This document shows, one piece after another, positions 19,186-32,842 of a DNA stretch of 64,000 nt (its first letter is position 1; each line of letters begins with the position of its first letter). The translations under genes were made by a program, and so were the position numbers. Origin of the DNA: Burkholderia sp. BCC0506 (GTDB lineage: Bacteria; Pseudomonadota; Gammaproteobacteria; Burkholderiales; Burkholderiaceae). The notes below the pieces were generated by a model. It worked only from the letters and a program-made list of their open reading frames with translations. It was not told where the DNA came from and searched no databases. Location of the stretch: the NCBI RefSeq assembly GCF_902833145.1, contig NZ_CADFEN010000004.1:62001-126000 (forward strand), given 5' to 3'.

Positions 19186-19290
19186 CTTCGGCTCCTGGAT
19201 AGCGTTGGATCGAGGCCGTACGGCAGGATGCCTGCGTCGGCCGCGACACGAAGAGTAGGCACGGCGGACTATCGAAACGGCAGCGCGAGG

Positions 19291-19306
19291 ATGAAACTTG
19301 TTTTAG
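19291..19306 (-). promoter_or_regulatory. Box 1 of the NTRAA-N6-TTCAT family
   Basis: Minus-strand CTAAAACAAGTTTCAT, 106 bp upstream of the leftward DUF4148 gene. The two 5-bp elements start 11 bp apart, the usual spacing for OmpR-family dimers. Confidence 0.6.
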
Positions 19307-19351
19307 GCACGCCCGGATCGGGCTCTGCCGCGGCTGCCGAATGCATGGAAG

Positions 19352-19367
19352 TTAAAGAATCCTTCAT
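19352..19367 (+). promoter_or_regulatory. Box 2 of the NTRAA-N6-TTCAT family
   Basis: Plus-strand TTAAAGAATCCTTCAT, 95 bp upstream of the small secreted protein at 19462. Together with box 1 it makes an oppositely oriented pair in one 276-bp intergenic region. Confidence 0.6.
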
Positions 19368-19461
19368 GCGTGTGTTTCCGGATGGTTAGGCGCAGCGGCG
19401 TATCGTCGAGCGATGACCCGATCGATGCCGCGCGCCGCGCGGTGCGCACTGGAGCAACGCA

Positions 19462-19671
19462 ATGAAATCAATCGTCACGATGGCTGGACTGGTCGCGCTG
19501 GTATGTACGTCGCTGCCGGCGTTCGCGAAGGTGCAGGGAACAGGGCTCGCGATCGCCGATGCGACGCTCGCGCACGCGAAAGCCGAACAGCGGGATCGTG
19601 CGATCGACGCCGCACGCGATCTCGCCTCGCGTCGCACGGACGGATCGGGCGCCCACTCGCACCGGGGCTGA
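19462..19671 (+). CDS. Small secreted protein of unknown function
   Basis: 69 residues. MKSIVTMAGLVALVCTSLPAFA is a clear signal peptide, leaving about 47 charged, Ala-rich residues that end in HSHRG. CTGGAGCAACGCA upstream provides a ribosome site. I recognise no family. It is followed by the response regulator gene in the same direction, with box 3 between them, and is preceded by box 2. It may be a small regulated envelope factor; a spurious short frame cannot be excluded, although signal peptide and ribosome site together argue for a real gene. Confidence 0.5.
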   Translation: MKSIVTMAGLVALVCTSLPAFAKVQGTGLAIADATLAHAKAEQRDRAIDAARDLASRRTDGSGAHSHRG

Positions 19672-19732
19672 TCGTGCGTTGCGGCGCCCGGTACGGCCAG
19701 GGACGACGACGGCCCGCACGCCGCCGCCGGAC

Positions 19733-19748
19733 ATGAAACTTTCTTCAT
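19733..19748. promoter_or_regulatory. Box 3 of the NTRAA-N6-TTCAT family
   Basis: ATGAAACTTTCTTCAT, nearly palindromic, 109 bp upstream of the response regulator gene at 19857. The position suggests autoregulation. Confidence 0.6.
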
Positions 19749-19856
19749 GAAGCCGATGCGCATCTTTTACGCGTGCCCGCATAAGCTCTGCACGAGCACG
19801 TTCGACCGTCGGGTCTCGACGCGCATACGTCCCTTCGATGAAGACGAGAATCGTAC

Positions 19857-20603
19857 ATGGCATCTTCAGCTTCCCCGGTTAACGAGCCCGCCCTGCCTGA
19901 CAGGCCGGCCGAGGACGGTGCGGCCGTCGCGCACGTGCTCACGATCGAAGACGACGAAATCACCGCGAACGAAATAGTCAGGGAGCTGGAAGGGCGCGGC
20001 TTTACGGTCGAATGGGTGGCGAACGGGCGCGATGGCATGGCCCGCGCGCTCGGCAACGAGTTCGACGTGATCACGCTCGACCGGATGCTGCCGGTCGTCG
20101 ACGGCCTCACGATCCTGACCACGATGCGCAGCGTCGGCGTGCGCACGCCCGTGTTGATGCTGAGCGCGCTCGGCGATGTCGACGAGCGCGTTCGCGGGCT
20201 GCGCGCGGGAGGCGACGACTACCTGACCAAACCGTTCGATCCCGAGGAAATGGCCGCGCGCCTGGAGGTGCTGCTGCGCCGCAGCCAGGCCGCGCCGGCC
20301 GCGCTCGACACGACGCTATCCGTTGGCCCGCTCAAGCTCGACCTGATTTCGCGCAAGGTGTTTCGCGACGGCGAAGAAATCGTGCTGTTGCCGACCGAGT
20401 ACCGCGTGCTCGAATACATGATGCGCAATGCCGGGCAAACCATCACGCGGACGATGTTGTTCGAGGCCGTATGGGGCTATCACTTCGATCCCGGCACGAA
20501 CCTGATCGAAGTGCACATGGGCCGGTTGCGCAGGAAGATCGATCCGCCCGATGCGCAGCAGATGATCCAGACGGTACGCGGTGCAGGGTATCGCCTTGGC
20601 TGA
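19857..20603 (+). CDS. OmpR-family response regulator
   Basis: 248 residues. The receiver (about 25-140) has E31/D32/D33, phosphoacceptor D75 (ITLDRMLP) and K125 (TKPF). The winged-helix DNA-binding domain (about 155-246) contains FEAVWGYHFDPGTNLIEVH and the recognition helix TNLIEVHMGRLRRK. The first 24 residues are a variable tail. Its 3' end overlaps the sensor kinase gene by 23 bp. Its DNA-binding domain is almost the same as that of the regulator at 30983-31657. Likely control of porin, DUF4148 and efflux genes is inferred from shared upstream boxes. Confidence 0.9.
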   Translation: MASSASPVNEPALPDRPAEDGAAVAHVLTIEDDEITANEIVRELEGRGFTVEWVANGRDGMARALGNEFDVITLDRMLPVVDGLTILTTMRSVGVRTPVLMLSALGDVDERVRGLRAGGDDYLTKPFDPEEMAARLEVLLRRSQAAPAALDTTLSVGPLKLDLISRKVFRDGEEIVLLPTEYRVLEYMMRNAGQTITRTMLFEAVWGYHFDPGTNLIEVHMGRLRRKIDPPDAQQMIQTVRGAGYRLG

Positions 20604-22014
20604 CCCGGCTACCGCGGCGTCCGCCGCGCATCACGTCCAGCCGGCGCCCGCGCGACGCTGGTACTCGAGTACGTTCCGGCTCGTGTCGGTCTACGCCGTC
20701 ACGTTCTCCGTGTCGGTCATGCTGCTGCTCGGTTTCATTGCGTCGGTGATCACGCACGACATGGAGCGGGAAACCGACACGGTGATCGACTGGCAGATGA
20801 TCTACTTCGATTCGATACAGGACGACCAGCTTCCCGCCGCGATCCGGCACCGGATCGAGCACGAGCGGATGCATACCAACTACTACGGGCTCTTTACCGC
20901 CGACGGCACGCATATTGCCGGCGATGTGCTGGCGTTGCCCGCCGGTATGCGGCCGAATCGCAACGGCGTGACGCTCGATCACACGATGCCGATCGCGGGG
21001 GACCAGGTGCCGCCGGTCGTCCGCGCGATGGCGGAGCGGCGGGCAAACGGCGACGTGCTGGTGCTCGGACGCGACCTCACGCACATCCTGCGGATCCGCG
21101 CGGGGATCATCCAGGCGCTGGTGGGCGGCGGGCTGCTCTGCCTCGGCACGGGCGTCGTGGGCGGCTTGATGCTCAGCGTGCGGCAAATGCGGCGTCTGAA
21201 GGCGGTCCGGCACATCACGCAGGGGATTGCGCAGGGCGACCTCGGCCAGCGGCTGCCGGTCGGCGGACACGACGAGATCGATCTGCTGTCCCATCTCGTC
21301 AACCATATGCTCGAGGAGATCGAGCGGCTGATGAACGAGGTAAAGGGTGTCTGCGACGGCATCGCGCATGACTTGCGGACCCCGCTCGCACACGTGCACA
21401 CGCTGCTCGCGCAGGCCGCCCAGCGCGCGGGGCGGCTCGACGATGCCGTGCTTGAGAATCTCGTCTCGCGTGCGCGCAACGAAACCGACGTGTTGCTCAG
21501 CCGTTTCCGGGCGATGCTGCGTATCGCCGAAATCGGTTCCCTGCAGCGGCGAGGCGGATTTGCGGAGCTGTCGCTCGAGGATCTGGTCGTGGACGTCGGG
21601 CAGTTGTTCGAACCGCTCGCGGACAGTCGCGCGATCCGCTTCGTGCAGTCCGTCGAGCCGGTCGCGCGGATTCACGGCGATCGCGCACTGTTGTTCGAGG
21701 CGCTGACCAACCTGCTCGACAATGCGCTCAAGTACACGACGTCGGGCGACACGGTACGCCTGGAACTTCATGACACGCCGTTCGGCCCGCGCATCGACGT
21801 GATCGACAACGGCCCGGGTATCGCGGCCGACGAGCGCGACGCGGTGCTGCGGTATCGGTACCGCAGCCGCCGTACCGGGCATCTCGCCGGCGCCGGGCTC
21901 GGCCTGAGCATCGTGTCGACGGTCGTCAACGTGCACGATTTCACGCTGCGCATCGGCAGTGCCGAGCCCGGCACGCGCGTGACGATCGAATGCTGGCCGA
22001 GGTCGCTGGGATGA
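20581..22014 (+). CDS. Membrane sensor histidine kinase
   Basis: 477 residues: a membrane segment at about 34-57, a periplasmic sensor loop (about 60-172), a second membrane segment (about 176-200), HAMP (about 200-252), then DHp with H263 in GIAHDLRTPLAH, an N box NLLDNALKYT, DNGPGIAADE and the ATP lid with GAGLGLSIV. The frame opens with GTG at 20581 inside the regulator gene. The periplasmic loop is about 110 residues and matches no sensor domain I recognise. It is the only complete orthodox kinase in this envelope module, so it may serve both OmpR-type regulators. Confidence 0.9.
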   Translation: MQGIALADPATAASAAHHVQPAPARRWYSSTFRLVSVYAVTFSVSVMLLLGFIASVITHDMERETDTVIDWQMIYFDSIQDDQLPAAIRHRIEHERMHTNYYGLFTADGTHIAGDVLALPAGMRPNRNGVTLDHTMPIAGDQVPPVVRAMAERRANGDVLVLGRDLTHILRIRAGIIQALVGGGLLCLGTGVVGGLMLSVRQMRRLKAVRHITQGIAQGDLGQRLPVGGHDEIDLLSHLVNHMLEEIERLMNEVKGVCDGIAHDLRTPLAHVHTLLAQAAQRAGRLDDAVLENLVSRARNETDVLLSRFRAMLRIAEIGSLQRRGGFAELSLEDLVVDVGQLFEPLADSRAIRFVQSVEPVARIHGDRALLFEALTNLLDNALKYTTSGDTVRLELHDTPFGPRIDVIDNGPGIAADERDAVLRYRYRSRRTGHLAGAGLGLSIVSTVVNVHDFTLRIGSAEPGTRVTIECWPRSLG

Positions 22015-22072
22015 TGCCCGTGCGTGCCAGACCGCACGTGCCGGCGTATTTCCGCCGCGAGGCCGGTTGACG

Positions 22073-22756
22073 ATGCGCATCCTGCTCGTGACCTCGCCGC
22101 ATCCGGAGGCGTCGTGGCTGCACAAGGCGCTGCAGGAAAGCGGGCACAGCCTGCAGCGCGCCGAGGATCCGCGCGACGGCCTGTTTCTCGCGTCGCAGGA
22201 GGCTTTCGACGCGATCGTCGCGACCGCGTTCGAGCCCGGCAGCGATGCCGCGCTGATTACGCTGCTGCCGCGTTTCGTCGCCGACGGCGGCGGCGCCGCG
22301 CTCGTGGTGCTGATCGGCGAGGCGTCGGCGCGCGAACGCATCCATCTGCTGCGCGCGGGCGCCGATGCGTGTTTCTGCGCGCCTTATTCGTTCATCGAGC
22401 TGCACGAACGCCTGCAGGCGTTGCAGCGGCTGGCCGGGCCGCGCGATGCGGGTCGCCCGATCGCGAGAGCATCCGCGTTCGAGACGCTGGCGCGCGAACT
22501 CAAGGACGGCAAGCTGCGCGTCGCCGTGACACGCCGCGAATACCTGTTGCTCGAATGCCTGATGCGCCACCCGAATGCGCCGGTGCCGCGTGACCAGTTG
22601 ATCCGGTATGTCTGGCAGGACAAGGAGGATGTCGATCCATCGAGCGTCAATCTCGTGGTGTCGCGGCTGCGCCGCAAGCTCGCGCGGCATCTGCCCGACG
22701 TCCGCATCGATACGGTGAGCCGCTACGGCTACCAGGTGACGCTGCCGGACGCATGA
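22073..22756 (+). CDS. OmpR-like regulator with degenerate receiver domain
   Basis: About 227 residues. The N-terminal half keeps the alpha/beta rhythm of a receiver (MRILLVTSPHPE ...) but lacks the acidic pair after strand 1, has VATAFEPGSD where the phosphoacceptor Asp is expected, and has CAPYSF in place of the K-P motif. Classical phosphorylation is therefore impossible. The C-terminal winged helix (about 140-226) is intact, with a different recognition helix (SSVNLVVSRLRRKL) from the other two regulators. It lies 58 bp after the kinase gene in the same direction. ATG at 22073 is preferred over a TTG two codons upstream. It may act as a constitutive or protein-interaction-controlled regulator. 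Confidence 0.8.
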   Translation: MRILLVTSPHPEASWLHKALQESGHSLQRAEDPRDGLFLASQEAFDAIVATAFEPGSDAALITLLPRFVADGGGAALVVLIGEASARERIHLLRAGADACFCAPYSFIELHERLQALQRLAGPRDAGRPIARASAFETLARELKDGKLRVAVTRREYLLLECLMRHPNAPVPRDQLIRYVWQDKEDVDPSSVNLVVSRLRRKLARHLPDVRIDTVSRYGYQVTLPDA

Positions 22757-23000
22757 ACGCGCGGTGCCGTCCGTGCAACGGACCTGACGGGCGCGCTGCC
22801 GGCGGCAACGCGCCCGTCGTGCGTTGACGAGCCGAAGAACGGCACGCAGAAGTCGGGTGGGCCGACACAATCGCCGGGGCCGTCCGGCTGCACGGAGGCG
22901 CAGCCTGACAGCACGACGCCCGCGGCAATCGCGAGGAGCGTGAGACGGGCGGAGCGAGCAACGGTCGAAGCTTCATGGATGGTGAGCAATTCAGTGAGCG
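22729..23000 (-). pseudogene. Small lipoprotein gene with a possible frameshift at its start
   Basis: On the minus strand a lipoprotein-type sequence RLTLLAIAAGVVLSGCASVQ (lipobox LSGC) is followed by a short Pro/Gly-rich mature part. The only well-placed ATG (near 22976, giving MKLRPLLA) is in another frame and would join this one if a single base were added about 25 bases after the ATG. Either one base has been lost or sequenced wrongly, or translation begins at an upstream TTG. Its end overlaps the converging regulator gene by 28 bp. No function is evident. Confidence 0.4.
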
Positions 23001-23056
23001 GGTGGCGGCGCGAGCGGCGTGAGCCAGGCACCGCGCCCGGCCGCACGTCGCGCGCA

Positions 23057-23329
23057 TCAATGCGCATAGAGCGTGGAGTTCAGGTACTTGAGCTGTCCGT
23101 CCTGTTCGGCGTGCACGAGATCGGCACGAACCTCGGCGCGCGTCTTCTCGTGGATCGGCTGGCCATAAGGCGGCACCCACTGGCCGGCAGCCTGGATGCC
23201 GGGCGCGCCATCCTTCGTGGCGGCCGGCGACACCTGAACCGGCTGACTGGCGGTCAGCGCAAACGCGGGAACGGACAGCGTGGCGATCGCGGCGAGCACG
23301 GCGGCGGCGACGATGTTGGCGGTTTTCAT
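23057..23329 (-). CDS. DUF4148 secreted protein
   Basis: About 90 residues: signal peptide MKTANIVAAAVLAAIATLS... ending PAFA, then a short mature part ending with the DUF4148 signature KTRAEVRADLVHAEQDGQL and YLNSTLYAH. Function is unknown, as for the family. AGGACTCC upstream of the ATG at 23329 is an acceptable ribosome site; longer in-frame starts add no sensible signal. It diverges from a porin gene across a region with two NTRAA-N6-TTCAT boxes. Confidence 0.75.
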   Translation of the reverse strand: MKTANIVAAAVLAAIATLSVPAFALTASQPVQVSPAATKDGAPGIQAAGQWVPPYGQPIHEKTRAEVRADLVHAEQDGQLKYLNSTLYAH

Positions 23330-23462
23330 GTCTGGAGTCCTCATGATGATTGACTGGGTAGCTCCCCTGGCGCGGCGCATCGGTATCGGAATCGATATCG
23401 GTGTCGCGCACGGGTTGAGGACAAGCATAGAGGGGACGCGTTAGCGGATCGGCATACGCAAC

Positions 23463-23478
23463 GTGAAAAGAAATTCAT
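23463..23478 (+). promoter_or_regulatory. Box 4 of the NTRAA-N6-TTCAT family
   Basis: GTGAAAAGAAATTCAT, 133 bp upstream of the leftward DUF4148 gene and 192 bp upstream of the rightward porin gene. Confidence 0.5.
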
Positions 23479-23524
23479 GCACCGTTGCGAACGCGTGCGG
23501 ACATGAAGCCGGTATGTCGCCAGG

Positions 23525-23540
23525 ATGAAGCAGGTTTCAT
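23525..23540. promoter_or_regulatory. Box 5 of the NTRAA-N6-TTCAT family
   Basis: ATGAAGCAGGTTTCAT, fitting the consensus on both strands, 130 bp upstream of the porin start codon and 46 bp from box 4. Confidence 0.6.
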
Positions 23541-23670
23541 TTTTCGGGCCGTTTCGATAACCGCGCTGTCATGCCGGCTGCCTAAATTGTGCGCGATCGC
23601 ATCGCGCACGAGCGGCTCTGCCGCACGGGCCGGCGATGCGAGCAGACCGATCCACTCCAACGAAACCATC

Positions 23671-24846
23671 ATGAAGAAATATCTGGCAATTCCGGCGGCG
23701 GTTGCGTGCCTGCTGGCGAGCGCGGCGCATGCGCAGAGCAGCGTGACGCTGTACGGCACGATCGACGCGGGCCTGGACTACATCAGCAACCAGAAATCGG
23801 CCGCGGGCGCGGGGCCCGTCTACGGCCTGCAGAGCGGCAACGTCAGCACGTCGCGCTGGGGGCTGCGCGGCAACGAGGATCTCGGCGGCGGGCTGTCGGC
23901 CGTGTTCACCCTCGAGAACGGCTTCAACGTCGCGAACGGCAAGTTCGGCAACGGCGGCGACGAATTCGGCCGCCAGGCGTGGGTCGGCCTCGCGAGCCGC
24001 CAGTGGGGCACGGTGACGCTCGGCCGCCAGTACGATTTCCTGGTCGACTTCGTCGCGCCGCTGTCGGCGACGGGCTCGGGATTCGGCGGCAACCTCGCCG
24101 ATCATCCGTACGACAACGACAATCTCGCCAACGACACGCGGATGAACAACGCGGTGAAGTTCCGCAGCGCGAACTACGGCGGCTTCACGTTCGGCGGCGC
24201 GTACGGTTTCAGCAATCAGGGCGGCGGGTTCAGCAACGACAACGCATACAGCGTCGGCGCGCAGTATGCGAACGGCCCGATCGACCTCGCCGTCGCGTAC
24301 CTGCAGTCGAACCAGCCTGGCGGTGTCGACGCGCGGCAGAACACCGGCGGCTCGCTGAGCAGTGCGGACGGCGATGCGATGCTCGTCGGCGGCCGCTGGC
24401 GCACGTTCGGCGCCGGCGCGCACTATGCGTTCGACCATGCCGCGATCGGCTTCGTCTATACCAGGACGATCCTGAACGACCCGCGCGAGCTGTCGCAGGG
24501 CGGCGCGTACGGCCGCGTAAACGGCCAGTTGCTGACCTTCAGCAACTACGAACTGAACGGACGCTACTTCCTCACGCCGGCGTTCTCGCTGGGCGGCTCC
24601 TATACGTTCACGCAGGGCCGCTTCGACGATGCGGGCCGCAGCATCGCGCCGAAGTGGAACCAGTTCATGCTGCAGGCCGACTATGCGCTGTCGCGCCGCA
24701 CCGACCTCTATCTGGAAGGCGTGTACCAGCGCGTGACCGGCGCGGACGGCGTCGCGGTGCTCGGCCACGCGGGCGTCTTCAATCTCGCGGCATCAGGCAA
24801 CGATCGTCAGGCCGTGGTCGCGGCCGGCATCCGTCACAAGTTCTGA
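23671..24846 (+). CDS. Gram-negative porin, second of three
   Basis: 391-residue outer-membrane porin: signal peptide ending AAHAQ, first strand SSVTLYGTIDAGLDYI, then SRWGLRGNEDLGGGLSAVF, GRQAWVGLAS, GTVTLGRQYDFLVD, and terminal phenylalanine in AAGIRHKF. It is the closest of the three porins to the classical OpcP/Omp38 pattern. The start at 23671 was chosen because it opens the signal peptide; upstream codons are not conserved and the ribosome site is weak. Its promoter region carries two probable OmpR-type boxes. Confidence 0.9.
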   Translation: MKKYLAIPAAVACLLASAAHAQSSVTLYGTIDAGLDYISNQKSAAGAGPVYGLQSGNVSTSRWGLRGNEDLGGGLSAVFTLENGFNVANGKFGNGGDEFGRQAWVGLASRQWGTVTLGRQYDFLVDFVAPLSATGSGFGGNLADHPYDNDNLANDTRMNNAVKFRSANYGGFTFGGAYGFSNQGGGFSNDNAYSVGAQYANGPIDLAVAYLQSNQPGGVDARQNTGGSLSSADGDAMLVGGRWRTFGAGAHYAFDHAAIGFVYTRTILNDPRELSQGGAYGRVNGQLLTFSNYELNGRYFLTPAFSLGGSYTFTQGRFDDAGRSIAPKWNQFMLQADYALSRRTDLYLEGVYQRVTGADGVAVLGHAGVFNLAASGNDRQAVVAAGIRHKF

Positions 24847-24869
24847 GCCGCCGGGCCGGCGTAAAAAAC

Positions 24870-24894
24870 GGCACCCGTCATCGCGACGGGTGCC
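24870..24894. terminator. Bidirectional rho-independent terminator
   Basis: A perfect stem GGCACCCGTC/GACGGGTGCC with a 5-base loop lies between the converging porin gene and RND efflux operon. Read leftward it is followed by G and six T residues, a good terminator for the efflux operon; read rightward it is followed only by TTG. Confidence 0.8.
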
Positions 24895-24931
24895 TTGAAA
24901 TGCGACACGCCTCGTCCATGTCGCAAGGGAC

Positions 24932-26386
24932 TCAGTTCGTCGAACGAGCCGGGGCTTGCGGACCGGATGCGGCTTCATCGGTCGACCACCCGCCGCCCAG
25001 CGCGGCGATCAACCCCACCGCCGCCAGTTGCCGGCGCGTGTTCAGCTCCAGCATCGCGATCTTCGTATCGAGTTCGATGGTCTGCGCGGTCACGACGTCG
25101 AGATAGCTGACGACACCGTCCCGGTAGCGCGACATCGACAGCTGCAACGTGCGCTCGGCCGCATCGAGCGCCTCCTGTTCGCGATCGGCTTCGTCGCCGA
25201 GGTGGTGCGTGAGCGCGAGGTTGTCTTCGACCTGCCGGCACGCATCGAGCACCACCGCACGGTATTTCGCGCCGTTCTCCGCCAGTTGCGCGCGCGCCTG
25301 GTCGGTGAGCGCCTGGCGCCGCCCGCCGTCGAACAGCGTCAGTGCGAGGCTCGGCCCGATCGACCAGATTTCGTTCGGCGCGCGCAGCCAGTGGCCGAGA
25401 CCGGAGCTCTGGTAGCCGCCGATCAGCCCGAGCGTGATGTCGGGGAAGAACGCCGCGCGCGCCACGCCGATCTTCGCGTTGGCGGCGGCCATGCGTCGCT
25501 CGGCGGCCGCGACGTCGGGGCGCCGCTGCAGCAGCGTCGCGGGAATGCCGGCCGGGATCGTCGGCAGATACGCCGCGTTCAGGTCCGGCGGCAGCGAGAA
25601 CGACGACGCCGGCACGCCCGTGAGCGTCGCGATCGAGTGCTCGTAGAGCGCGCGCCGCGCCCGGACGTCCTCGGCCGATGCGCGAGCCGAATCGAGCTGC
25701 GTCTGCGCGCGCGAGACGTCGAGATCGGACGCGATGCCGCCCGCGTGCCGGCTCATCGTCAGGCGCAGCGCGCGCTGATACGTGTGGATCGTGTCGGTCA
25801 GCAGCCGTTGCTGCTGATCGAGCCCGCGCAGGTTGAAGTACGCGCTGGCGAGGCTGGCCTGCAGGCTCAGCCGCACCGACGCGAGATCGTCGGCGCTGGC
25901 CTGGGCGTCGGCGCGCCCGGCCGCGACTTCATTCCGCACTTTCCCCCACAGATCGAGGTCGTAGTCGAAGCCCGCGTCGAACGTGTCGTCGCCATAGACG
26001 TTCGGCTGGTTCGCGCCGCGCAGCGGCCGCGTGGCCGATTGACGATTGCTCGAGACCTGCGCGCCGAGGCCGATGGTCGGGAACAGGCCCGAGCGTGCCT
26101 GATCGAACAGCGCCGCCGCTTCGTCGTGGCGGGCCACGGCCGCGGCCACGTCGGGGTTGGCCGCGGCCACCCGTGCTTCGAGCCGGTCGAGCACGGGATC
26201 GCGGAACGCCTTCCACCAGCCGTCGCGCGCGATGCGGTCGGCCGGCTTCGCGGGCTGCCAGCCGCCCGCTTCCTTGAAACTGGCCGGCAGCGCCGTTTGC
26301 GGCGCGCGATACGTGGGCGCGAACGAGCACGCGCAGAGGAACGCGACGCCGGCGAGCATCGCGCAGAGCCGAAGCCGGTTAGCCAT
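24932..26386 (-). CDS. RND efflux outer-membrane lipoprotein (NodT/OprM family)
   Basis: 484 residues: lipoprotein signal peptide with lipobox LCAC, then two OEP repeats typical of TolC-like channels (first about 60-250, second about 270-460; KIGVARAAFFPDITLGLIGG and DVSRAQTQLDSARASAED are family-typical). It forms the trimeric outer-membrane duct of the efflux pump. The ATG at 26386 overlaps the stop of the adaptor gene by 8 bp, indicating coupling; a GTG two codons earlier is also possible. Last gene of a three-gene leftward operon, followed by a terminator. Confidence 0.92.
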   Translation of the reverse strand: MANRLRLCAMLAGVAFLCACSFAPTYRAPQTALPASFKEAGGWQPAKPADRIARDGWWKAFRDPVLDRLEARVAAANPDVAAAVARHDEAAALFDQARSGLFPTIGLGAQVSSNRQSATRPLRGANQPNVYGDDTFDAGFDYDLDLWGKVRNEVAAGRADAQASADDLASVRLSLQASLASAYFNLRGLDQQQRLLTDTIHTYQRALRLTMSRHAGGIASDLDVSRAQTQLDSARASAEDVRARRALYEHSIATLTGVPASSFSLPPDLNAAYLPTIPAGIPATLLQRRPDVAAAERRMAAANAKIGVARAAFFPDITLGLIGGYQSSGLGHWLRAPNEIWSIGPSLALTLFDGGRRQALTDQARAQLAENGAKYRAVVLDACRQVEDNLALTHHLGDEADREQEALDAAERTLQLSMSRYRDGVVSYLDVVTAQTIELDTKIAMLELNTRRQLAAVGLIAALGGGWSTDEAASGPQAPARSTN

Positions 26387-27584
26387 GCGCACGCTCCGTA
26401 TCGCGCGCGGCCGACGCGACGGTGCCCGCCGGCGCCGCGAGCCGGACCGGGTCGCCGTCGGCGAGCGAGTCGGGCGGGTTGTCGATCACGCGGTCGTCCG
26501 GCGCGAGGCCGGTCGCGATCTGCACGTGCGTGCCGAGGTCGGTCGCGATCGTCACGGGCTTGAATACCGCGCGATCGTCCTTGCCGACCACGGCGACCTG
26601 CAGGCCGGCCTGCCGGAAGATCAACGAGCTGGCCGGAATCGTCAGCGCGTGGGTGCTGCCCGCCGGCAGCGCGAAATGCACTTCGGTGTATTCGCCGGGA
26701 ATCAGCTTGCCGCCGGGGTTGTCGACCATCAACTGGACGAGCAGCGTGCCGGTCGAATCGGCGATCGAGTCGTCGGTGTCGGCGAGCGTCGCCCGAAAGG
26801 TTTCGCCCGGATGCTCCGGCACGGTCAGCGTGGCCGTCATGCCGGGCCGGATCGCGGCGGCCTCGTTCTGCGGCACGCTCACGTAGACGCGCATCCGATG
26901 GACGTCGGACACGGCGAACAGTTCCGGGCCGGCGCCGCCGCCGGCCGAAATCAACTGGCCGATGTCGGTCTTGCGCGCGGTGACGACGCCGTCGAACGGC
27001 GCGACGATGCGCTTGAACGCCTCCAGCGCCTCGAGGCGCCGCACGTTCGCTTCGTTGGCGGCGACGATCGCCTGCTTGGCCGCGAGGTCGCTGGTCTTCT
27101 CGTCGGTTTCCTGCTGCGACACCGAATCCTGCGCGAGCATCCGGGTCCAGCGCGCGGCCGTGGACGCGGCCAGCTTCTCGTTGGCCAGCGAGCTCTGCAG
27201 GTCGGCGCGGGCCTGCTGCAGTTGCTGGTCGAGCTCGGGCGTGTCGATCAGACCGAGCAGTTGCCCCGACTTCACGTGCGCGCCGATATCGGTGTACCAC
27301 GCATGCAGGTAGCCCGACACCTGCGCGTGGATCGGCGCGCTCTCGAACGCGGACAGGTGGCCGGGCAGCACGAGCGTGGCGCCTTCGCCGCCGGTCTGCG
27401 GCGTGTACGCGACCACGGTCGGCACCGCCTGTTCGGCGGACCAGCTGGTCATTTCCTGTTTCGCGTGCGCGCGGCCGATGATGCCGGTCGCCACGATGCC
27501 GACCGCGATCAGCGCGGTGACCGTGGCGACGAGCTTGAGGTTGGGCAGCCGTTTCGGCGACTTGATATCGATCTCAGTGGACAT
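26379..27584 (-). CDS. RND efflux periplasmic adaptor (membrane fusion protein)
   Basis: 401 residues: a single N-terminal membrane anchor (LKLVATVTALIAVGIVATGI), a barrel-sandwich/lipoyl half (YTPQTGGEGATLVLPGHLSA), a coiled-coil hairpin (about 115-205, beginning QQLQQARADLQSSLANEKLA), the second lipoyl half (FKRIVAPFDGVVTARKTDIG) and beta-barrel/membrane-proximal domains. It links the RND pump to the outer-membrane channel. The start at 27584 has GGAGCTTCCC upstream and overlaps the pump gene by 11 bp. The substrate cannot be told from sequence. Confidence 0.92.
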   Translation of the reverse strand: MSTEIDIKSPKRLPNLKLVATVTALIAVGIVATGIIGRAHAKQEMTSWSAEQAVPTVVAYTPQTGGEGATLVLPGHLSAFESAPIHAQVSGYLHAWYTDIGAHVKSGQLLGLIDTPELDQQLQQARADLQSSLANEKLAASTAARWTRMLAQDSVSQQETDEKTSDLAAKQAIVAANEANVRRLEALEAFKRIVAPFDGVVTARKTDIGQLISAGGGAGPELFAVSDVHRMRVYVSVPQNEAAAIRPGMTATLTVPEHPGETFRATLADTDDSIADSTGTLLVQLMVDNPGGKLIPGEYTEVHFALPAGSTHALTIPASSLIFRQAGLQVAVVGKDDRAVFKPVTIATDLGTHVQIATGLAPDDRVIDNPPDSLADGDPVRLAAPAGTVASAARDTERAHG

Positions 27585-30500
27585 GGGAAGCTCCGGACGC
27601 GGAAGGGGAGGAAGCGCGGGACGCGTCGTGCTTGAGCGCATCGCGCCGGTGCACGAGGCTGAACACGACGGGAACGAAGAACAGCGTCGCGATCGTCGCG
27701 CACGCGAGGCCGCCGATCACGGCGCGGCCGAGCGGCGCGTTCTGCTCGCCGCCGTCGCCGAGGCCGAGCGCCATCGGCGCCATGCCGATGATCATCGCGA
27801 GCGCGGTCATCAGCACCGGGCGGAAGCGCGTGAAACCGGCTTCGAGCGCGGAGGCCAGCGCGTTGCCGGTGTCGGCCAGGCGCTCGCGCGCGAAACTGAC
27901 GACGAGGATCGAGTTCGCGGTGGCCACGCCCATGCACAGGATCGCGCCGGTCAGCGCCGGCACCGACAGCGGCGTATGCGTGGTGAACAGCATCCACACG
28001 ATGCCGGCCAGCGCCGCCGGCAGCGCCGAGACGATCACGAATGCGTCGGCCCACGAGTGGAAGTTCACGACGATCAGCAGGTAGATCAGCACGATCGCGC
28101 CCACGAGGCCGAGCAGCAGGCCCGCGAACGCGCCGTTCATGGTCTGCACCTGGCCGCGCAGCGTCACGGTCGAGCCCTTGGGCAGATCCTTTGCGGTGGC
28201 CTTGACGATGCCGTCGATGTCGGTCGCGACCGCGCCGAGGTCGCGCCCCTGGGTGGTCGCGTAGACGTCGAACAGCGGTTCGATGTTGTAGTGCGACACC
28301 ACCGCGTTGCCGACGCCCCGCGTGATCGTGGCCAGGCCGCCCAGCAGCTGGGACTGGCCATTCGCGCCCGTGACCGGCAGATTCTGCAGCGCCGACAGCG
28401 TGGTCATCCGGTACTGCGGCGTCTGCGCGACGATCGGATAGGACACGCCGTTGTGCGGGTTGAGCCAGTAGGTCGGGTCGACCTGGCTGGTGCCGGCGAG
28501 CGTCGCGACCACCGAGTTCGTCACGTCCTGCTCGGTGATGCCCAACTGGTCGGCGCGCGTGCGGTCGACCGTCACCGTGAACTGCGGATAGGTGCTGGCC
28601 TGCTGGATGCGTGGGTCGGCGACGCCGGGGATCAGGCGCAGCTTGCGGTACAGCTCGCGCGCATAGGCGAGATTGGCCTGCTGGTTCGGGCCGGCCACCT
28701 GCAGGTCGACCGGGGCCGGCGCGCTGAAATTGAGGATCTGGCTGACGATGTCGGCGGGCAGGAACGAGAACGTGGTGCCCGGATAGGCGCGCGGCAGGCG
28801 TTCGCGCAGCGTGCGCACGTAGTCGGCGGTCGGCGTGTGATCGCGCGACAGCGAGATCAGGATGTCGCCGTCCTGCGGCCCGAGCGTGCCGCTGTTGTTG
28901 TAGGTGAGGTTGATCCCGCTGTTCGGCAGGCCGATGTTGTCGATCACTTCGCGCAGTTGCGCGGGCGGGATCACGCCGCGAATCGTGTTCTCGATGCGGT
29001 CGAGCTCGGCGGCGGTTTCCTCGACACGCGTGCCGACCGGTGCACGCACGTGCAGCGCGATCTCGCCGGAATCGATGGTCGGGAAGAAATTGCGGCCGAG
29101 CGACGGCGCGAGCAGGAACGACGCAGCCACGATGCAGAGGAAGGCGACGACGAACGGCTTGCGGCGCGTGAGCGCGAGGCCCAGCAGGATCCGGTACGAC
29201 GCGCGCACGGACTCGAAGCGGCGCTCGAATGCACGCTGAAAGCGCACCAGCGGATTGCGCGACGGCGGAGCGTCGTGCGCGCCGGCATGGCCCGCGTGCG
29301 GATCCATGACCGCGGCCAGTTCGCCCGACGCGTGACCGGCCGATGCGTGCGGCTTGAGCAGGTATTGCGCGAGCATCGGCACGAAGGTGCGCGACAGCAC
29401 GAACGACGACACCATCGAGAAGATCACCGCCTTGGCCATCGGCACGAACAGAAAGCGCGAGATGCCGTCGAGCATCAGCATCGGCACGAACACGATGCAG
29501 ATGCACAGCAGCGAGACCAGCGCCGGCATCACGATCTGCTTCGCGCCGTCGACGATCGCGGTGCGCGTGTCCTTGCCCTGTTCGAGGTGCCAGTTCACGT
29601 TCTCGATCGTCACCGTCGCGTCGTCGACCAGGATCCCGACCGCGAGCGCGAGGCCGCCGAGCGTCATCACGTTCAGCGTTTCGCCGGTGGCCGCGAGCAG
29701 CGCGATCGCCGACAGCACGGCCAGCGGGATCGACGCGGCGATGATCAGTGTCGAGCGCCACGAGCCGAGGAACAGCAGGATCATCAGCGAGGTCAGCGCG
29801 GCGGCGATGATGCCTTCGCGCGCCACGCCGCTGACGGCGCCGTTCACGAAGGTCGACTGGTCGCCCATCGTGACGAGCTTCAAGCCCGGCGGCAGCGTCT
29901 GTTCGACCAGCGGCAGCTTCGCCTTCACGCCCGCGATGATGTCGAGCGTCGACGCCGAGCCGTTCTTCAGGATACTCATCAGCACCGCGCGGTGGCCGTC
30001 CACGCGCACGATGTTGCCCTGCGGCGGGTAGCCGTCGCGCACATGGGCGACGTCGCGCATGTAAATCGTCGTGCCGCCCACCGACTTGATCGGCAGGTCG
30101 TTCAACGCATCGAGCGAGAGCGGGCTGTTGTTGAGCTTGATGTTGTATTCGAAGCGGCCGATCTTCTGCGTGCCGGCCGGGATGATCTGATTCTGCTGCG
30201 CGAGCGCGCGCGCGACGTCCTGCGCCGACAGCCCTTTAGACTGCAGCGCCTGCGGGTCGAGGTCGATCTGCACTTCGCGTGTCTTGCCGCCGTACGGCGT
30301 CGGAATCGCGACGCCGGGCACCGACAGCAACTGCGGCCGAATGAAGTTGACCGCGTAATCCCCGAGCTTCTGTTCGTCGAGCGTGTTGCTGGTCAGCGCG
30401 ATCTGCAGCACCGGTACCGTCGACGCGTTGTAGTTGAGGATCTGCGGCGGCGTGGTGCCGGGCGGCATCTGCTTGAGCACCGTCTGCGAGATCGACGTGA

Positions 30501-30828
30501 CCTGCGCGGTCGCCGTGCGGATATCGACGGTCGGCTGGAAGAAGATCTTCACGATGCCGTAGCCGCGGAACGATTGCGACTCGATATGCTGGACGTCGTT
30601 CACCGTCGTGCCAAGCGTGCGCTCGTAGTACGTGATCACGCGTCCGGCCATGTCGTCCGGCTGCAGGCCGGCGTAGTTCCAGACGACGCTGATCACCGGA
30701 ATGCGGATGTCCGGGAAGATGTCGATGGGCGTTCGGATCGCCGCGAGCGGGCCCGCGATCAGGATCAGCAGCGCCAGTACGACGAACGTATAGGGCCGCG
30801 TGAGCGCGAGCCGGACAATTTTCAGCAT
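27574..30828 (-). CDS. RND multidrug efflux pump, inner-membrane subunit
   Basis: 1084 residues with the duplicated RND layout: TM1 (about 9-30), a large periplasmic porter loop, TM2-6, an intracellular connection, TM7, a second porter loop and TM8-12. The proton-relay aspartate pair is present in ALAVGILVDDATVTIENVN, and the N terminus (LTRPYTFVVLALLILI, then TPIDIFPDIRIPVISVVW) places it with HAE1-type drug pumps of the MdtB/BpeF sort rather than metal pumps. It is the first gene of the operon (pump, adaptor, outer-membrane channel). Box 6 lies 126 bp upstream of its start. A response regulator gene ends 154 bp upstream in the same direction. Confidence 0.93.
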   Translation of the reverse strand: MLKIVRLALTRPYTFVVLALLILIAGPLAAIRTPIDIFPDIRIPVISVVWNYAGLQPDDMAGRVITYYERTLGTTVNDVQHIESQSFRGYGIVKIFFQPTVDIRTATAQVTSISQTVLKQMPPGTTPPQILNYNASTVPVLQIALTSNTLDEQKLGDYAVNFIRPQLLSVPGVAIPTPYGGKTREVQIDLDPQALQSKGLSAQDVARALAQQNQIIPAGTQKIGRFEYNIKLNNSPLSLDALNDLPIKSVGGTTIYMRDVAHVRDGYPPQGNIVRVDGHRAVLMSILKNGSASTLDIIAGVKAKLPLVEQTLPPGLKLVTMGDQSTFVNGAVSGVAREGIIAAALTSLMILLFLGSWRSTLIIAASIPLAVLSAIALLAATGETLNVMTLGGLALAVGILVDDATVTIENVNWHLEQGKDTRTAIVDGAKQIVMPALVSLLCICIVFVPMLMLDGISRFLFVPMAKAVIFSMVSSFVLSRTFVPMLAQYLLKPHASAGHASGELAAVMDPHAGHAGAHDAPPSRNPLVRFQRAFERRFESVRASYRILLGLALTRRKPFVVAFLCIVAASFLLAPSLGRNFFPTIDSGEIALHVRAPVGTRVEETAAELDRIENTIRGVIPPAQLREVIDNIGLPNSGINLTYNNSGTLGPQDGDILISLSRDHTPTADYVRTLRERLPRAYPGTTFSFLPADIVSQILNFSAPAPVDLQVAGPNQQANLAYARELYRKLRLIPGVADPRIQQASTYPQFTVTVDRTRADQLGITEQDVTNSVVATLAGTSQVDPTYWLNPHNGVSYPIVAQTPQYRMTTLSALQNLPVTGANGQSQLLGGLATITRGVGNAVVSHYNIEPLFDVYATTQGRDLGAVATDIDGIVKATAKDLPKGSTVTLRGQVQTMNGAFAGLLLGLVGAIVLIYLLIVVNFHSWADAFVIVSALPAALAGIVWMLFTTHTPLSVPALTGAILCMGVATANSILVVSFARERLADTGNALASALEAGFTRFRPVLMTALAMIIGMAPMALGLGDGGEQNAPLGRAVIGGLACATIATLFFVPVVFSLVHRRDALKHDASRASSPSASGASHVH

Positions 30829-30953
30829 GAGGTGCCGCTCCGTTCGAAATCGTCGTGAAGAAGAGCCGGATGTGCGCGTGTTCGGGAAAACACCGGGGCG
30901 CAACCGATGACCGCATTCTGCGGAGCGGCCCCTAACAGCCGGTGGCAAAAAAG

Positions 30954-30969
30954 ATGAAACAAGTTTTAA
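30954..30969 (-). promoter_or_regulatory. Box 6 of the NTRAA-N6-TTCAT family
   Basis: Minus-strand TTAAAACTTGTTTCAT, between the end of the response regulator gene and the start of the RND operon, correctly placed to control the efflux genes. Confidence 0.65.
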
Positions 30970-30982
30970 GTAGCGGGCGGAC

Positions 30983-31657
30983 TCAACCGAGCATGTAGCC
31001 GGAACCGCGGATCGTGCGGATCAGCGGCGTGGCGCCTGGCCGGTTCACCTTCTTGCGCAGGCGGCCGACGTGCACGTCGATCAGGTTCGTCCCCGGATCG
31101 AAGCGGCAGCCCCATACGGCCTCGAAGATCATCGTGCGCGTGAGCACGCGGCCGGCGTTGCGCATCATGAATTCGAGCACGCGGGATTCGGTCGGCAGCA
31201 GCGCGAGCTCGTGCGCGCCCAGTGTCGCGCGTCGCCGCACCAGGTCGAGCGCCAGCTCGCCCGCGCGCAGCACCGTGTCGACGTGCGTGCCGCGCGGCCG
31301 CCGGCGAATCAGCACGTCGATACGCGCGCACATCTCTTCGAGCGAGAACGGCTTGACGAGGTAGTCGTCGCCGCCCGCGCGCAGCCCCTGGATACGCTGA
31401 TCGACGTCGGACATCGCGCTCATCACGAGTACCGGCGTATCGAGGCCGACGCCGCGCATCGTCGCGAGGATCGTCAGCCCGTCGAGGTCGGGCAACATGC
31501 GATCGAGCGTGACGACGTCGTAGTTCGCGCTCATCGCCCGCGCCATGCCGTCGCGACCGGTGCGCGCGACGTCGATCCGGTGGCCTTCGGCACGCAGCGT
31601 GTGCGCGATGTGATCGGCCAGCAGCGGATCGTCTTCGATCGTCAGGATGTGTGCCAT
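30983..31657 (-). CDS. OmpR-family response regulator without adjacent kinase
   Basis: 224 residues: receiver (about 1-120) with E8/D9/D10, phosphoacceptor D52 (VTLDRMLP) and K102 (VKPF), and winged-helix domain (about 130-224) with FEAVWGCRFDPGTNLIDVH. Throughout, and especially in the recognition helix, it closely matches the regulator at 19857-20603, suggesting duplication and a shared binding site. No kinase gene adjoins it; upstream is a LysR gene, downstream the RND operon. The start at 31657 (MAHILTIEDD) was chosen because the receiver begins there; the 12-residue longer form would overlap the LysR gene. Confidence 0.9.
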   Translation of the reverse strand: MAHILTIEDDPLLADHIAHTLRAEGHRIDVARTGRDGMARAMSANYDVVTLDRMLPDLDGLTILATMRGVGLDTPVLVMSAMSDVDQRIQGLRAGGDDYLVKPFSLEEMCARIDVLIRRRPRGTHVDTVLRAGELALDLVRRRATLGAHELALLPTESRVLEFMMRNAGRVLTRTMIFEAVWGCRFDPGTNLIDVHVGRLRKKVNRPGATPLIRTIRGSGYMLG

Positions 31658-31679
31658 GGCGTGCGCGATTCCGGCGGAA

Positions 31680-32606
31680 TCAGGCGGCGGCAAGCTGCAT
31701 GGCGGCGGTGCGGTCCGGCGCGCGATAGTGGTCGACCACGTAGTCGATGAAGCTGCGCACTTTCGTGGAAAGATAATTGCGACTGGGGTAGAGGATCGAG
31801 ACGCAGCGCGGGCCGCCGTTCACTTCGTAGCGTTCGAGAATCGGCACCAGGGTGCCGCGCGCGAGATCGTCGGCCACGAGCGGATGCGGCAATTGCGCGA
31901 TGCCCATGTGATCGAGTGCCGCGATGCGCACCATCGTGTTGCTGGTCGATGCCAGCGCATTGCCCGTATAGATGCGACAGGCGCCGTCGGCATCCGAGAA
32001 CTCCCAGTTGCGCGCGGCGCCGTTCGACACGGTCAGCAGGCTGTGCGCATTCAGGTCGGCCGGCTCGACGGGCTTGCCGTGGCGCGCGAGATAGTCGGGA
32101 GACGCGACGATCACGTCGCGCACGCTCGTCAACGTCCGCGACACGAAGGTCGAGTTGACGAGGCGGTGATCGTCGCAGAAGCACACGTCGTAGCCGCCTT
32201 CCACCATGTCGACCTGGATATCGAACGTCGTCACGTCGAATCGCACGCGCGGATGCTCGAGGCGATACGTGGACAGCAGCGCGCCAAGCCCGGCCGCAAC
32301 CGACGTTGCCGACGCGGCGATGCGCAGCGTGCCGTGCGGGTCGCGATTGACCTGCGCGAGATTCGATTCGATCTCGTCGAGCTTCTCGATGATCGCGCGG
32401 CAGCCGTCGAGATATTCGCGGCCTGTCTCGGTGAGCGACAGGCTGCGCGTGGTCCGGTTCAACAGGCGCATGTTCAGGTGGGCTTCGAGCATGCCGACGC
32501 TGCGCGTGACCGCGGCGGCCGACATGCCGAGCTGACGTGCGGCGAGACTGAAGCTCGATAACTCGACCACACGCGTGAAAACGCGCATCGCTTGCAGTTG
32601 GTTCAT
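31680..32606 (-). CDS. LysR-family transcriptional regulator
   Basis: 308 residues: N-terminal winged helix (about 1-60; SSFSLAARQLGMSAAAVTRS) and a periplasmic-binding-protein-like effector domain (about 90-300), of the CrgA/DmlR-like subgroup. It ends 22 bp before the response regulator gene in the same direction, so the two may be cotranscribed. Boxes 7 and 8 lie upstream. Effector unknown. Confidence 0.88.
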   Translation of the reverse strand: MNQLQAMRVFTRVVELSSFSLAARQLGMSAAAVTRSVGMLEAHLNMRLLNRTTRSLSLTETGREYLDGCRAIIEKLDEIESNLAQVNRDPHGTLRIAASATSVAAGLGALLSTYRLEHPRVRFDVTTFDIQVDMVEGGYDVCFCDDHRLVNSTFVSRTLTSVRDVIVASPDYLARHGKPVEPADLNAHSLLTVSNGAARNWEFSDADGACRIYTGNALASTSNTMVRIAALDHMGIAQLPHPLVADDLARGTLVPILERYEVNGGPRCVSILYPSRNYLSTKVRSFIDYVVDHYRAPDRTAAMQLAAA

Positions 32607-32759
32607 GATCGGCGAGGAATGGATTGGCCGGAAATACGGGGCGGCGCGCCGGTCTTCAGCGGGCTGCGTCGACGCATCGTGCCGCGCCTGCCGGGTCGGG
32701 CAGCGAATTCATTATGGAAGGCACGCGGGCGCGGGACGTTAAAAAACGGTGCTGACCGG

Positions 32760-32775
32760 ATGAAATTTCATTTAG
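32760..32775 (-). promoter_or_regulatory. Box 7 of the NTRAA-N6-TTCAT family
   Basis: Minus-strand CTAAATGAAATTTCAT, 154 bp upstream of the leftward LysR gene start. Confidence 0.6.
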
Positions 32776-32826
32776 AAAGCGGTGCCGCCCCGCGGACGAT
32801 GGGCACGACGCGCTTTATCAAGCTTT

Positions 32827-32842
32827 CTAAAAAAAGATTCAT
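32827..32842 (+). promoter_or_regulatory. Box 8 of the NTRAA-N6-TTCAT family
   Basis: Plus-strand CTAAAAAAAGATTCAT, 72 bp upstream of the rightward gene at 32915. Confidence 0.6.

What the first reader, a model, noticed from the sequence alone, without database searches (positions are those of the whole stretch)
19291..32842. Eight copies of a 16-bp box NTRAA-N6-TTCAT define a probable two-component regulon
CTAAAACAAGTTTCAT, TTAAAGAATCCTTCAT, ATGAAACTTTCTTCAT, GTGAAAAGAAATTCAT, ATGAAGCAGGTTTCAT, TTAAAACTTGTTTCAT, CTAAATGAAATTTCAT and CTAAAAAAAGATTCAT occur at 19291, 19352, 19733, 23463, 23525, 30954, 32760 and 32827. All are intergenic, and I noticed none elsewhere in the window. By hand estimate (A or T about 0.17 each), roughly 0.1 copies would be expected by chance in 64 kb. 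The two half-elements are 11 bp apart, as for OmpR-family dimers. The sites precede two DUF4148 genes, a small secreted protein, the response regulator itself, a porin, the RND efflux operon, a LysR gene and an unknown gene. This links outer-membrane permeability and efflux under one switch.
Basis: partly seen in the sequence, partly recalled or inferred. Interest (0 to 1): 0.8.

Follow-up and report, generated by a model that had tools for sequence, protein, structure and literature searches.

The report
Conserved operator of a porin-efflux regulon
Eight short mirror-image DNA sites beside two related regulator genes in a Burkholderia genome look like genuine landing pads for those regulators, which probably switch on a porin, an efflux pump and small secreted proteins together.

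Summary
All eight boxes exist, are intergenic and are the only ones in the window (10 strand matches, 0.24 expected). In 80 related loci there are 249 boxes against 4 for the reversed pattern; 1 lies inside an annotated gene and 234 lie just upstream of one. The element is an inverted repeat, ATGAAA-N4-TTTCAT, not a tandem OmpR-type repeat. A -10-like TAnnnT lies exactly 33 bp downstream (176 composites at gap 33; 20 and 13 at gaps 42 and 27; 0-5 at the other 11 gaps tested), with a third conserved element before it and no conserved -35: the geometry of an activator site. Five of eight window boxes obey it.

Box presence tracks one response-regulator (RR) group: 79 of 85 RRs at 70% identity or more, 4 of 51 below. 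In this genome the only other cluster lies upstream of the 73% paralogue. Nearest precedent: AgrR/CopR (same 6-4-6 geometry, other letters, inferred spacing one turn further out); the RRs miss the curated heavy-metal RR cutoff. Binding, signal and direction are untested; the LysR/unknown-gene pair lacks the -10 rule.

The parts
19291..19306 (-). box CTAAAACAAGTTTCAT toward DUF4148a; -10 TACTCT at gap 33 (19252-19257)
   Evidence: conserved in 3 Burkholderia relatives
19352..19367 (+). box TTAAAGAATCCTTCAT toward the small secreted ORF; -10 TATCGT at gap 33 (19401-19406)
19733..19748 (+). palindromic box ATGAAACTTTCTTCAT upstream of RR A; -10 TAAGCT at gap 33 (19782-19787)
23463..23478 (-). box ATGAATTTCTTTTCAC toward DUF4148b; -10 TATGCT at gap 33 (23424-23429)
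23525..23540 (+). palindromic box ATGAAGCAGGTTTCAT upstream of the porin; -10 TAAATT at gap 42 (23583-23588)
23557..23572 (+). second, imperfect inverted repeat ATAACCGCGCTGTCAT in the porin promoter
   Evidence: 2 mismatches to the AgrR consensus; number of hits at chance level; ATAAC-N6-GTCA kept in 5 Burkholderia rows
30954..30969 (-). box TTAAAACTTGTTTCAT upstream of the RND operon; -10-like CAGAAT at gap 33 (30915-30920)
32760..32775 (-). box CTAAATGAAATTTCAT toward the LysR gene; no -10 at gap 33
32827..32842 (+). box CTAAAAAAAGATTCAT toward the unknown 127-aa gene; no -10 at gap 33
18880..19185 (-). DUF4148 protein a
   Evidence: Pfam PF13663
19462..19671 (+). small secreted ORF, 69 aa
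   Evidence: no family above cutoff
19857..20603 (+). response regulator A (OmpR family)
   Evidence: PF00072 + PF00486
20581..22014 (+). histidine kinase
   Evidence: HAMP and HATPase_c above cutoff, HisKA below cutoff
22067..22756 (+). pseudo-receiver regulator (pRR): DNA-binding domain with a receiver that has lost the phosphorylation residues
23057..23356 (-). DUF4148 protein b (the -10 at 23424-23429, if real, excludes the ATG at 23428 as start)
   Evidence: sequence
23671..24846 (+). porin
   Evidence: PF13609
24932..26392 (-). RND outer membrane factor
   Evidence: TIGR01845 above cutoff
26379..27641 (-). RND adaptor
   Evidence: TIGR01730 above cutoff
27574..30828 (-). RND pump
   Evidence: PF00873; below the curated NCBIfam subfamily cutoffs
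30983..31693 (-). response regulator C, no adjacent kinase
31680..32606 (-). LysR-type regulator
32915..33298 (+). unknown 127-aa protein
   Evidence: no Pfam or NCBIfam match

Best explanation
The box is the primary operator of an OmpR-family response-regulator group (RR A here, paralogue RR B on contig C14, and probably RR C at 30983). A dimer binds the 6-4-6 inverted repeat ATGAAA-N4-TTTCAT. A weaker second contact lies 22 bp further on (CGnTA or TTAG at positions 33-38, counting the box as 1-16), just before the -10. From there the regulator recruits RNA polymerase to promoters that lack a conserved -35, at a fixed 33-bp gap to TAnnnT (box centre about -53.5). When the kinase is active, the RR raises its own expression and co-induces the DUF4148 proteins, the porin (variant spacing) and the RND operon. 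Shown: conservation, geometry, location, co-occurrence with the RR group. Inferred: binding, activation, the tandem contact, the role of the kinase. Unknown: the signal.
For: Enrichment at two RR loci only. Paralogue RR B has two palindromic boxes directly upstream. 249 boxes against 4 control in 80 loci; 1 inside an annotated gene by a 30-bp margin, 5 touching one at all (random positions 43% inside); 234 of 249 within 450 bp upstream of an annotated start (random 19%). Negatives inside operons: pRR 0 of 93, outer membrane factor 0 of 54, adaptor 1 of 29. Spacer peak at N6. -10 rule: TAnnnT at gap 33 in 81 of 87 distinct DUF4148 promoters and 32 of 52 RR promoters; 159 of 488 oriented contexts at gap 33, mean 4.6 over 95 gaps. 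Window: 5 of 8 boxes (4 strict TAnnnT). Two loci not used to find the rule, though close kin of loci that were: Burkholderia cenocepacia L215 has all 8 boxes in the same order, 5 with the rule; Caballeronia L213 has 6 boxes, 4 with it; reversed-pattern control 0 in both. Of 30 RND loci returned, those close to an RR of this group have a box in 14 of 17, the others in 0 of 13 (with places). In four genomes (G032, G093, G102, G110) RR B is the only RR at E <= 1e-80 and the RND box is present, so one RR can serve it. Box with RR identity 70% or more: 79 of 85; below: 4 of 51. Recognition helix GTNLI[DE]VHMGRLR[KR]K: 79 of 84; other helices 4 of 52. AgrR precedent (PMC7380067, abstract and passages).
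Against: No binding or expression data. The 80 loci are related and some genomes enter twice, so counts are not independent. pRR is found in 76 of the 80 loci and could be the binder. The 32760/32827 boxes and the second C14 box (TACGAT at gap 27) break the 33-bp rule; 63 of 249 boxes in the relatives have no [TC]AnnnT at gap 33 on either side. 6 of 85 RRs of the group lack an exact box upstream; 2 of 80 loci have no box. RR C has a box upstream of itself in only 2 of 8 copies, porin A in 0 of 12. Direct repeats TTCAT-N9/N10-TTCAT also exceed the background (25 and 35 counts), mostly by repeated strings. Activation is inferred from promoter geometry alone.
Confidence: 0.8

Rival explanations
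1. The pseudo-receiver regulator (pRR, 22067-22756), not the canonical RR, binds the box as a phosphorylation-independent regulator.
For: pRR is annotated in 76 of 80 loci and keeps a DNA-binding domain.
Against: Its recognition-helix stretch (DPSSVNLVVSRLRRK and variants) differs from the GTNLIDVHMGRLRKK helix whose presence tracks the box. Locus L087 has a box 127 bp before the RR match but no pRR hit, although another locus of that strain (L110) has one.
Confidence: 0.1
2. The boxes are repressor sites: unphosphorylated or phosphorylated RR blocks these promoters.
For: Related RRs can act both ways: CzcR represses the porin gene oprD (as told in PMC7380067). The porin promoter has a different spacing and a second element near its -10.
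Against: The box does not overlap the -10; no -35 is conserved; a fixed 33-bp gap across many promoters is typical of activators (general knowledge). AgrR acts as activator from a similar position.
Confidence: 0.15
3. The boxes belong to another regulator (for example the LysR protein at 31680) or are chance palindromes.
For: Two boxes flank the LysR gene.
Against: The C14 paralogue region (174000-192000) shows boxes with RR, kinase and pRR; the reading frames printed there show no LysR-type regulator and no RND gene by eye (not searched by profile). Counts exceed chance in window and relatives.
Confidence: 0.03

Closest known systems
AgrR box and AgrR regulon, Cupriavidus metallidurans (PMC7380067 and PMC10127602; abstracts and passages seen)
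   Same: OmpR-family RR; 16-bp 6-4-6 imperfect inverted repeat; additional in-phase half-site at some operators; own promoter, a small periplasmic protein (PrsQ2) and an OmpC-type porin among upregulated genes; RND genes agrABC beside the regulator genes; promoters with no or poor -35.
   Different: Half-sites ATTACA/TGTAAT against ATGAAA/TTTCAT; box centre -43.5 at its own promoter against an inferred -53.5, one helical turn further; the agr efflux genes did not change significantly in their mutant (Table 1), whereas a box precedes the RND operon here; no pseudo-receiver regulator or second RR is mentioned in the passages seen. AgrR's own sequence was not compared.
CopR/CzcR/SilR heavy-metal response regulators (NCBIfam TIGR01387)
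   Same: Closest curated family; CopR of Pseudomonas syringae binds an inverted repeat within 16 bp (as told in PMC7380067). The heavy-metal RR beside the copper genes of pMOL30 (taken as CopR) is 44% identical to RR A.
   Different: RR A, B and C score 205, 203 and 196 bits against a cutoff of 279; the pMOL30 regulator scores 345.
DzrR-DesABC envelope stress response (PMC10052836; abstract, outline and passages seen)
   Same: Two-component RR with a Burkholderia homologue that directly activates an RND operon, apparently without phosphorylation.
   Different: Direct CTCCAT repeats; that box is at chance level in the window (1 match with 3 mismatches, 3.4 expected).
IrlRS / IrlR2-IrlS2 with a neighbouring DUF4148 gene, Burkholderia pseudomallei (PMC7549894: passages seen; PMC13037405: start of abstract and one passage in its reference list seen)
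   Same: DUF4148 gene next to a two-component pair; the authors of PMC7549894 say the closeness may be coincidental.
   Different: They resemble heavy-metal regulators; DUF4148 lies downstream of the kinase; no operator motif in what I saw (the words motif and binding site do not occur in PMC13037405).

Membership tests
OmpR/PhoP-family response regulator | Receiver plus winged-helix C-terminal domain with phosphorylation residues | tested here: met
   PF00072 and PF00486 for RR A and RR C; the position of Asp 75 is Asp in 153 of 162 RR copies and Glu in 9
Heavy-metal RR subfamily (CztR/SilR/CopR, TIGR01387) | Score above the curated cutoff of 279.2 bits | tested here: not met
   205.1, 203.0 and 196.4 bits; positive control from pMOL30 345.1
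AgrR regulon | 16-bp 6-4-6 inverted-repeat operator | tested here: met
   Spacer scan; the two 6-bp arms differ at 0-3 positions in 129 distinct boxes (positions 2, 4, 5, 12, 13 and 15 were fixed by the search pattern)
AgrR regulon | Consensus ATKACA-N4-TGTMAT | tested here: not met
   1 match with 2 mismatches in the window, 1.46 expected; it is the second porin element
AgrR regulon | Box centred near -43.5 | tested here: inconclusive
   -53.5 inferred from a 33-bp gap to the -10; start sites not mapped
AgrR regulon | Orthology of RR A to AgrR | not tested
OmpR-type tandem operator | Direct repeat of half-sites | tested here: not met
   TTCAT-N6-TTCAT 7 against ATGAA-N6-TTCAT 140
DzrR | Direct CTCCAT repeats upstream of the RND operon | tested here: not met
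Direct regulon of RR A | Binding of the RR to the box | not testable with these tools
   needs EMSA, footprinting or ChIP

The most novel reading that the evidence does not exclude
One histidine kinase feeds two full response regulators (RR A or B, and the orphan RR C) that share one operator, together with a third, pseudo-receiver regulator that is kept as a gene in 76 of 80 loci although its receiver has lost the phosphorylation residues in 95 of 95 copies examined. The three form a layered switch that sets porin, efflux and small surface proteins together. In one Paraburkholderia lineage RR C has replaced the phosphorylated Asp by Glu and the Lys by Arg (9 copies), which would make it signal-independent.
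Probability: 0.25. Interest if true: 0.75.

Novelty: new variant of a known kind. Interest (0 to 1): 0.55.

Why it matters
It gives a ready-to-test operator, promoter geometry and gene list for a two-component regulon that my searches did not find described, seen in Burkholderia, Paraburkholderia, Caballeronia and Trinickia. DUF4148 proteins have no known biochemical function (9 papers in the library mention them; one reports a surface-located virulence factor, another induction by arsenite and antimonite); a shared operator with a porin and an RND pump would be a new lead on what they work with. If confirmed, it shows outer-membrane influx and efflux under one regulator, and adds a second half-site code to the inverted-repeat class of OmpR-family operators.

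Tried and rejected
Tandem OmpR-type site: rejected. N7 spacer variant: of the 26 palindromes behind the second peak, 17 are near-identical strings repeated in related loci with no annotated start nearby (presumably coding; not tested), 7 sit in the flank next to a known box, 2 lie near a DUF4148 gene. Membership in the curated heavy-metal RR family: rejected on score. DzrR box: rejected. DUF4148 as CopQ/PrsQ: five small hypothetical proteins of pMOL30 gave no Pfam match; I could not tell which is CopQ, so the question stays open. Other own-genome boxes as targets: 18 places; only one has [TC]AnnnT at gap 33 and it lies inside a predicted coding frame; the places near a porin (C4:438175) and a polysaccharide-export-like gene (C4:515272) lack the rule. 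A count of palindromes over 150 family genomes was noisy because small genomes also carry many. Distant RR homologues (27 loci, L152-L178): 1 of 27 has the box right upstream (L171, two copies); several show other 6-4-6 palindromes, suggestive only. My first count said that no box lies inside an annotated gene; that script tested only the boxes without a neighbouring start, and the recount gives 1 of 249. A FastTree of 136 RR copies needs 10 changes of box presence; no clade test was run. Promoter scan, structure prediction and fold search were not run.
Full report
OBSERVATION. TRAAN6TTCAT matches 10 times (8 places) in the window against 0.24 expected, no shuffle of 100 reaching 10. All lie between genes if likely starts are taken. 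The window is G000:C4:62001-126000 of a 7.29-Mb genome; its nearest RR A relative in genome contigs is in Burkholderia anthina, 95% identical. Genome-wide there are 34 strand matches, 28 places: 8 here, 2 at contig C14, 18 elsewhere; the reversed pattern gives 6. The 20 strand matches outside the RR loci do not exceed the roughly 27 that the window's shuffle rate implies, so the excess is confined to the RR loci.

THE PARALOGUE. RR A (19857) has 73 matches in its own genome. The two best after itself are C14:180888 (73% identity, here RR B) and window 30983 (58%, RR C); the next are 40-42%. The two C14 boxes begin 137 and 100 bp before the RR B match, in front of an RR-kinase-pseudo-RR set like that in the window. 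That ties the box to this RR subfamily rather than to the LysR or RND genes.

RELATIVES. One scan of genome contigs kept the best 80 of 268 relatives. These 80 loci (1.53 Mb) hold 249 boxes; the reversed pattern has 4; 78 loci have at least one box. With tblastn annotation from window proteins, 1 of 249 boxes lies inside an annotated gene by a 30-bp margin (L051, in an RND match) and 5 touch one at all (43% of random positions lie inside); 234 lie within -40 to 450 bp upstream of an annotated start (19% of random positions); 15 have no annotated neighbour. Neighbours, not exclusive: DUF4148 169, RR 98, porin 49, RND 20, unknown-127 15, kinase 11. Per gene: RR 57 of 65, DUF4148a 43 of 52, DUF4148b 46 of 52, porin B 25 of 35 (5 of 9 of lower identity), RND 20 of 26 (0 of 13 of lower identity), unknown-127 12 of 14, LysR 3 of 8 (0 of 10 lower), RR C 2 of 8, kinase 11 of 99, porin A 0 of 12; operon-internal genes pRR 0 of 93, outer membrane factor 0 of 54, adaptor 1 of 29. 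One query (RR B) was translated in a wrong frame; RR B copies were caught by the RR A query and the box counts do not depend on it. The loci are related, so these counts are not independent events.

NATURE OF THE BOX. The spacer scan peaks at N6 for ATGAA-N6-TTCAT (140 strand counts, 70 sites); the direct repeat TTCAT-N6-TTCAT has 7. Direct repeats with N9 and N10 have 25 and 35 counts, mostly a few repeated strings, some of them overlapping boxes. It is an inverted repeat, 6-4-6, with right half TTTCAT or TTTTAG. Among 129 distinct 16-mers the two 6-bp arms differ at 0, 1, 2 or 3 positions in 10, 47, 40 and 32 cases; part of that symmetry is set by the search pattern, so the spacer scan is the better evidence. 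An alignment of 13 RR B-type promoters shows two boxes whose ATGAA arms are invariant and whose right arms are invariant in the second box and vary at two bases in the first, between variable stretches; the window's own boxes stand out likewise.

PROMOTER GEOMETRY. Reading from the box toward the gene, TAnnnT lies at a gap of exactly 33 bp in 81 of 87 distinct DUF4148 promoters and 32 of 52 RR promoters; in the RND set (17) the commonest hexamers there are CACACT 8, CAGAAT 4 and CACAAT 4; porins have TAnnnT at gap 42 in 19 of 28. Over 488 oriented contexts the count at gap 33 is 159, mean 4.6 over 95 gaps; 186 of 249 boxes have [TC]AnnnT at gap 33 on at least one side. The composite of a loosened box plus TAnnnT occurs 176 times at gap 33, 3 at 32, 2 at 34, 20 at 42, 13 at 27, 0-5 at the other 9 gaps tested. 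A third element, CGnTA or TTAG, sits at positions 33-38, 22 bp from the right half-site and about 12 bp before the -10; no -35 is conserved. In the window, 19291, 19352, 19733, 23463 (TAnnnT) and 30954 (CAGAAT) obey the rule; 23525 (porin) has TAAATT at gap 42; 32760 and 32827 do not. Of the 2 C14 boxes 1 obeys; the other has TACGAT at gap 27. Of the 18 other own-genome places 1 does, inside a predicted coding frame. With the usual 6-7 bp from -10 to start, the box centre falls near -53.5 (inference).

LOCI NOT USED TO FIND THE RULE. Burkholderia cenocepacia L215 has 8 boxes in the same order and near-identical spacing as the window, 5 with the rule; Caballeronia L213 has 6 boxes, 4 with it; control 0 in both. 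They are close kin of loci in the set, so this is a weak hold-out. Paraburkholderia caribensis L214 (RR 59%, next to a DUF4148 gene) and Bradyrhizobium L216 (57%) have no box.

WHICH PROTEIN. Of 136 distinct RR copies with at least 300 bp upstream, a box lies within 650 bp upstream in 79 of 85 at 70% identity or more and in 4 of 51 below. RRs with helix GTNLI[DE]VHMGRLR[KR]K have it in 79 of 84, others in 4 of 52. RR C has Val for Met in this helix and mostly lacks a box upstream of itself, but its neighbour RND carries one. Of 30 RND loci returned, those close to an RR of this group have a box in 14 of 17 (L179-L191 and L193; not L192, L194, L195), those elsewhere in 0 of 13 (with places). 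In four genomes (G032, G093, G102, G110) RR B is the only RR at E <= 1e-80 and the RND box is there (L188-L191); L099, annotated, has boxes before DUF4148, RR and RND with one full RR in the fetched 20 kb. So one RR can serve all boxes.

PSEUDO-RECEIVER. The third regulator of the trio (22067-22756) keeps the DNA-binding domain. In 95 of 95 aligned copies the residues matching Glu 31, Asp 32, Asp 75 and Lys 125 of RR A are lost; the gene is annotated in 76 of 80 loci. In 9 RR copies, all RR C type, Asp 75 is Glu and Lys 125 is Arg; two of them (L071, L131) seem to be the same contig by length.

COMPARISON. AgrR of Cupriavidus metallidurans binds a 16-bp 6-4-6 inverted repeat ATTACA-N4-TGTAAT with additional in-phase half-sites, activates its own promoter and promoters of a small periplasmic protein and an OmpC-type porin, and acts near -43.5 or slightly upstream at promoters lacking a good -35 (PMC7380067). 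The present system works like that with other letters and one more helical turn. Whether RR A is the AgrR orthologue was not tested. The curated heavy-metal RR family is the nearest by profile but not reached (205 of 279 bits; pMOL30 control 345). DzrR, another RND-activating RR in Burkholderia, uses different direct repeats (PMC10052836).

NOT IN PRINT, as far as searched. Searches of the open-access library with DUF4148 terms and regulator/operator terms listed no paper that, by the titles and abstract starts shown, describes this box or regulon; some lists were capped, and subscription papers are mostly missing from the library.

VERDICT. The regulon reading is well supported; the operator is an inverted repeat at a fixed distance from the -10; binding, direction and signal remain to be shown.

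Noticed in passing
window 22067-22756: A conserved pseudo-receiver regulator follows the kinase; the residues matching Glu 31, Asp 32, Asp 75 and Lys 125 of RR A are lost in 95 of 95 copies.
   Followed up: partly
L068, L070-L074, L085, L131, L134: RR C copies with Asp to Glu and Lys to Arg in the receiver, a possible signal-independent form.
   Followed up: partly
window 23557-23572: Second, imperfect inverted repeat ATAACCGCGCTGTCAT in the porin promoter, close to the AgrR consensus and kept in Burkholderia relatives.
   Followed up: partly
L171 (G253:C5), upstream of a 52% RR homologue: Two ATGAA-N6-TTCAT palindromes about 65 and 175 bp upstream of a distant RR outside the family.
   Followed up: no
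L214 (Paraburkholderia caribensis plasmid): A 59% RR homologue sits beside a DUF4148 gene, with a LysR gene two genes away, no annotated kinase and no box within the fetched 16.7 kb.
   Followed up: no
L152, L153, L155-L158 (another family of the order): RR homologues at 61-64% seem to lie just downstream of a reading-frame end that looks porin-like (read by eye).
   Followed up: no
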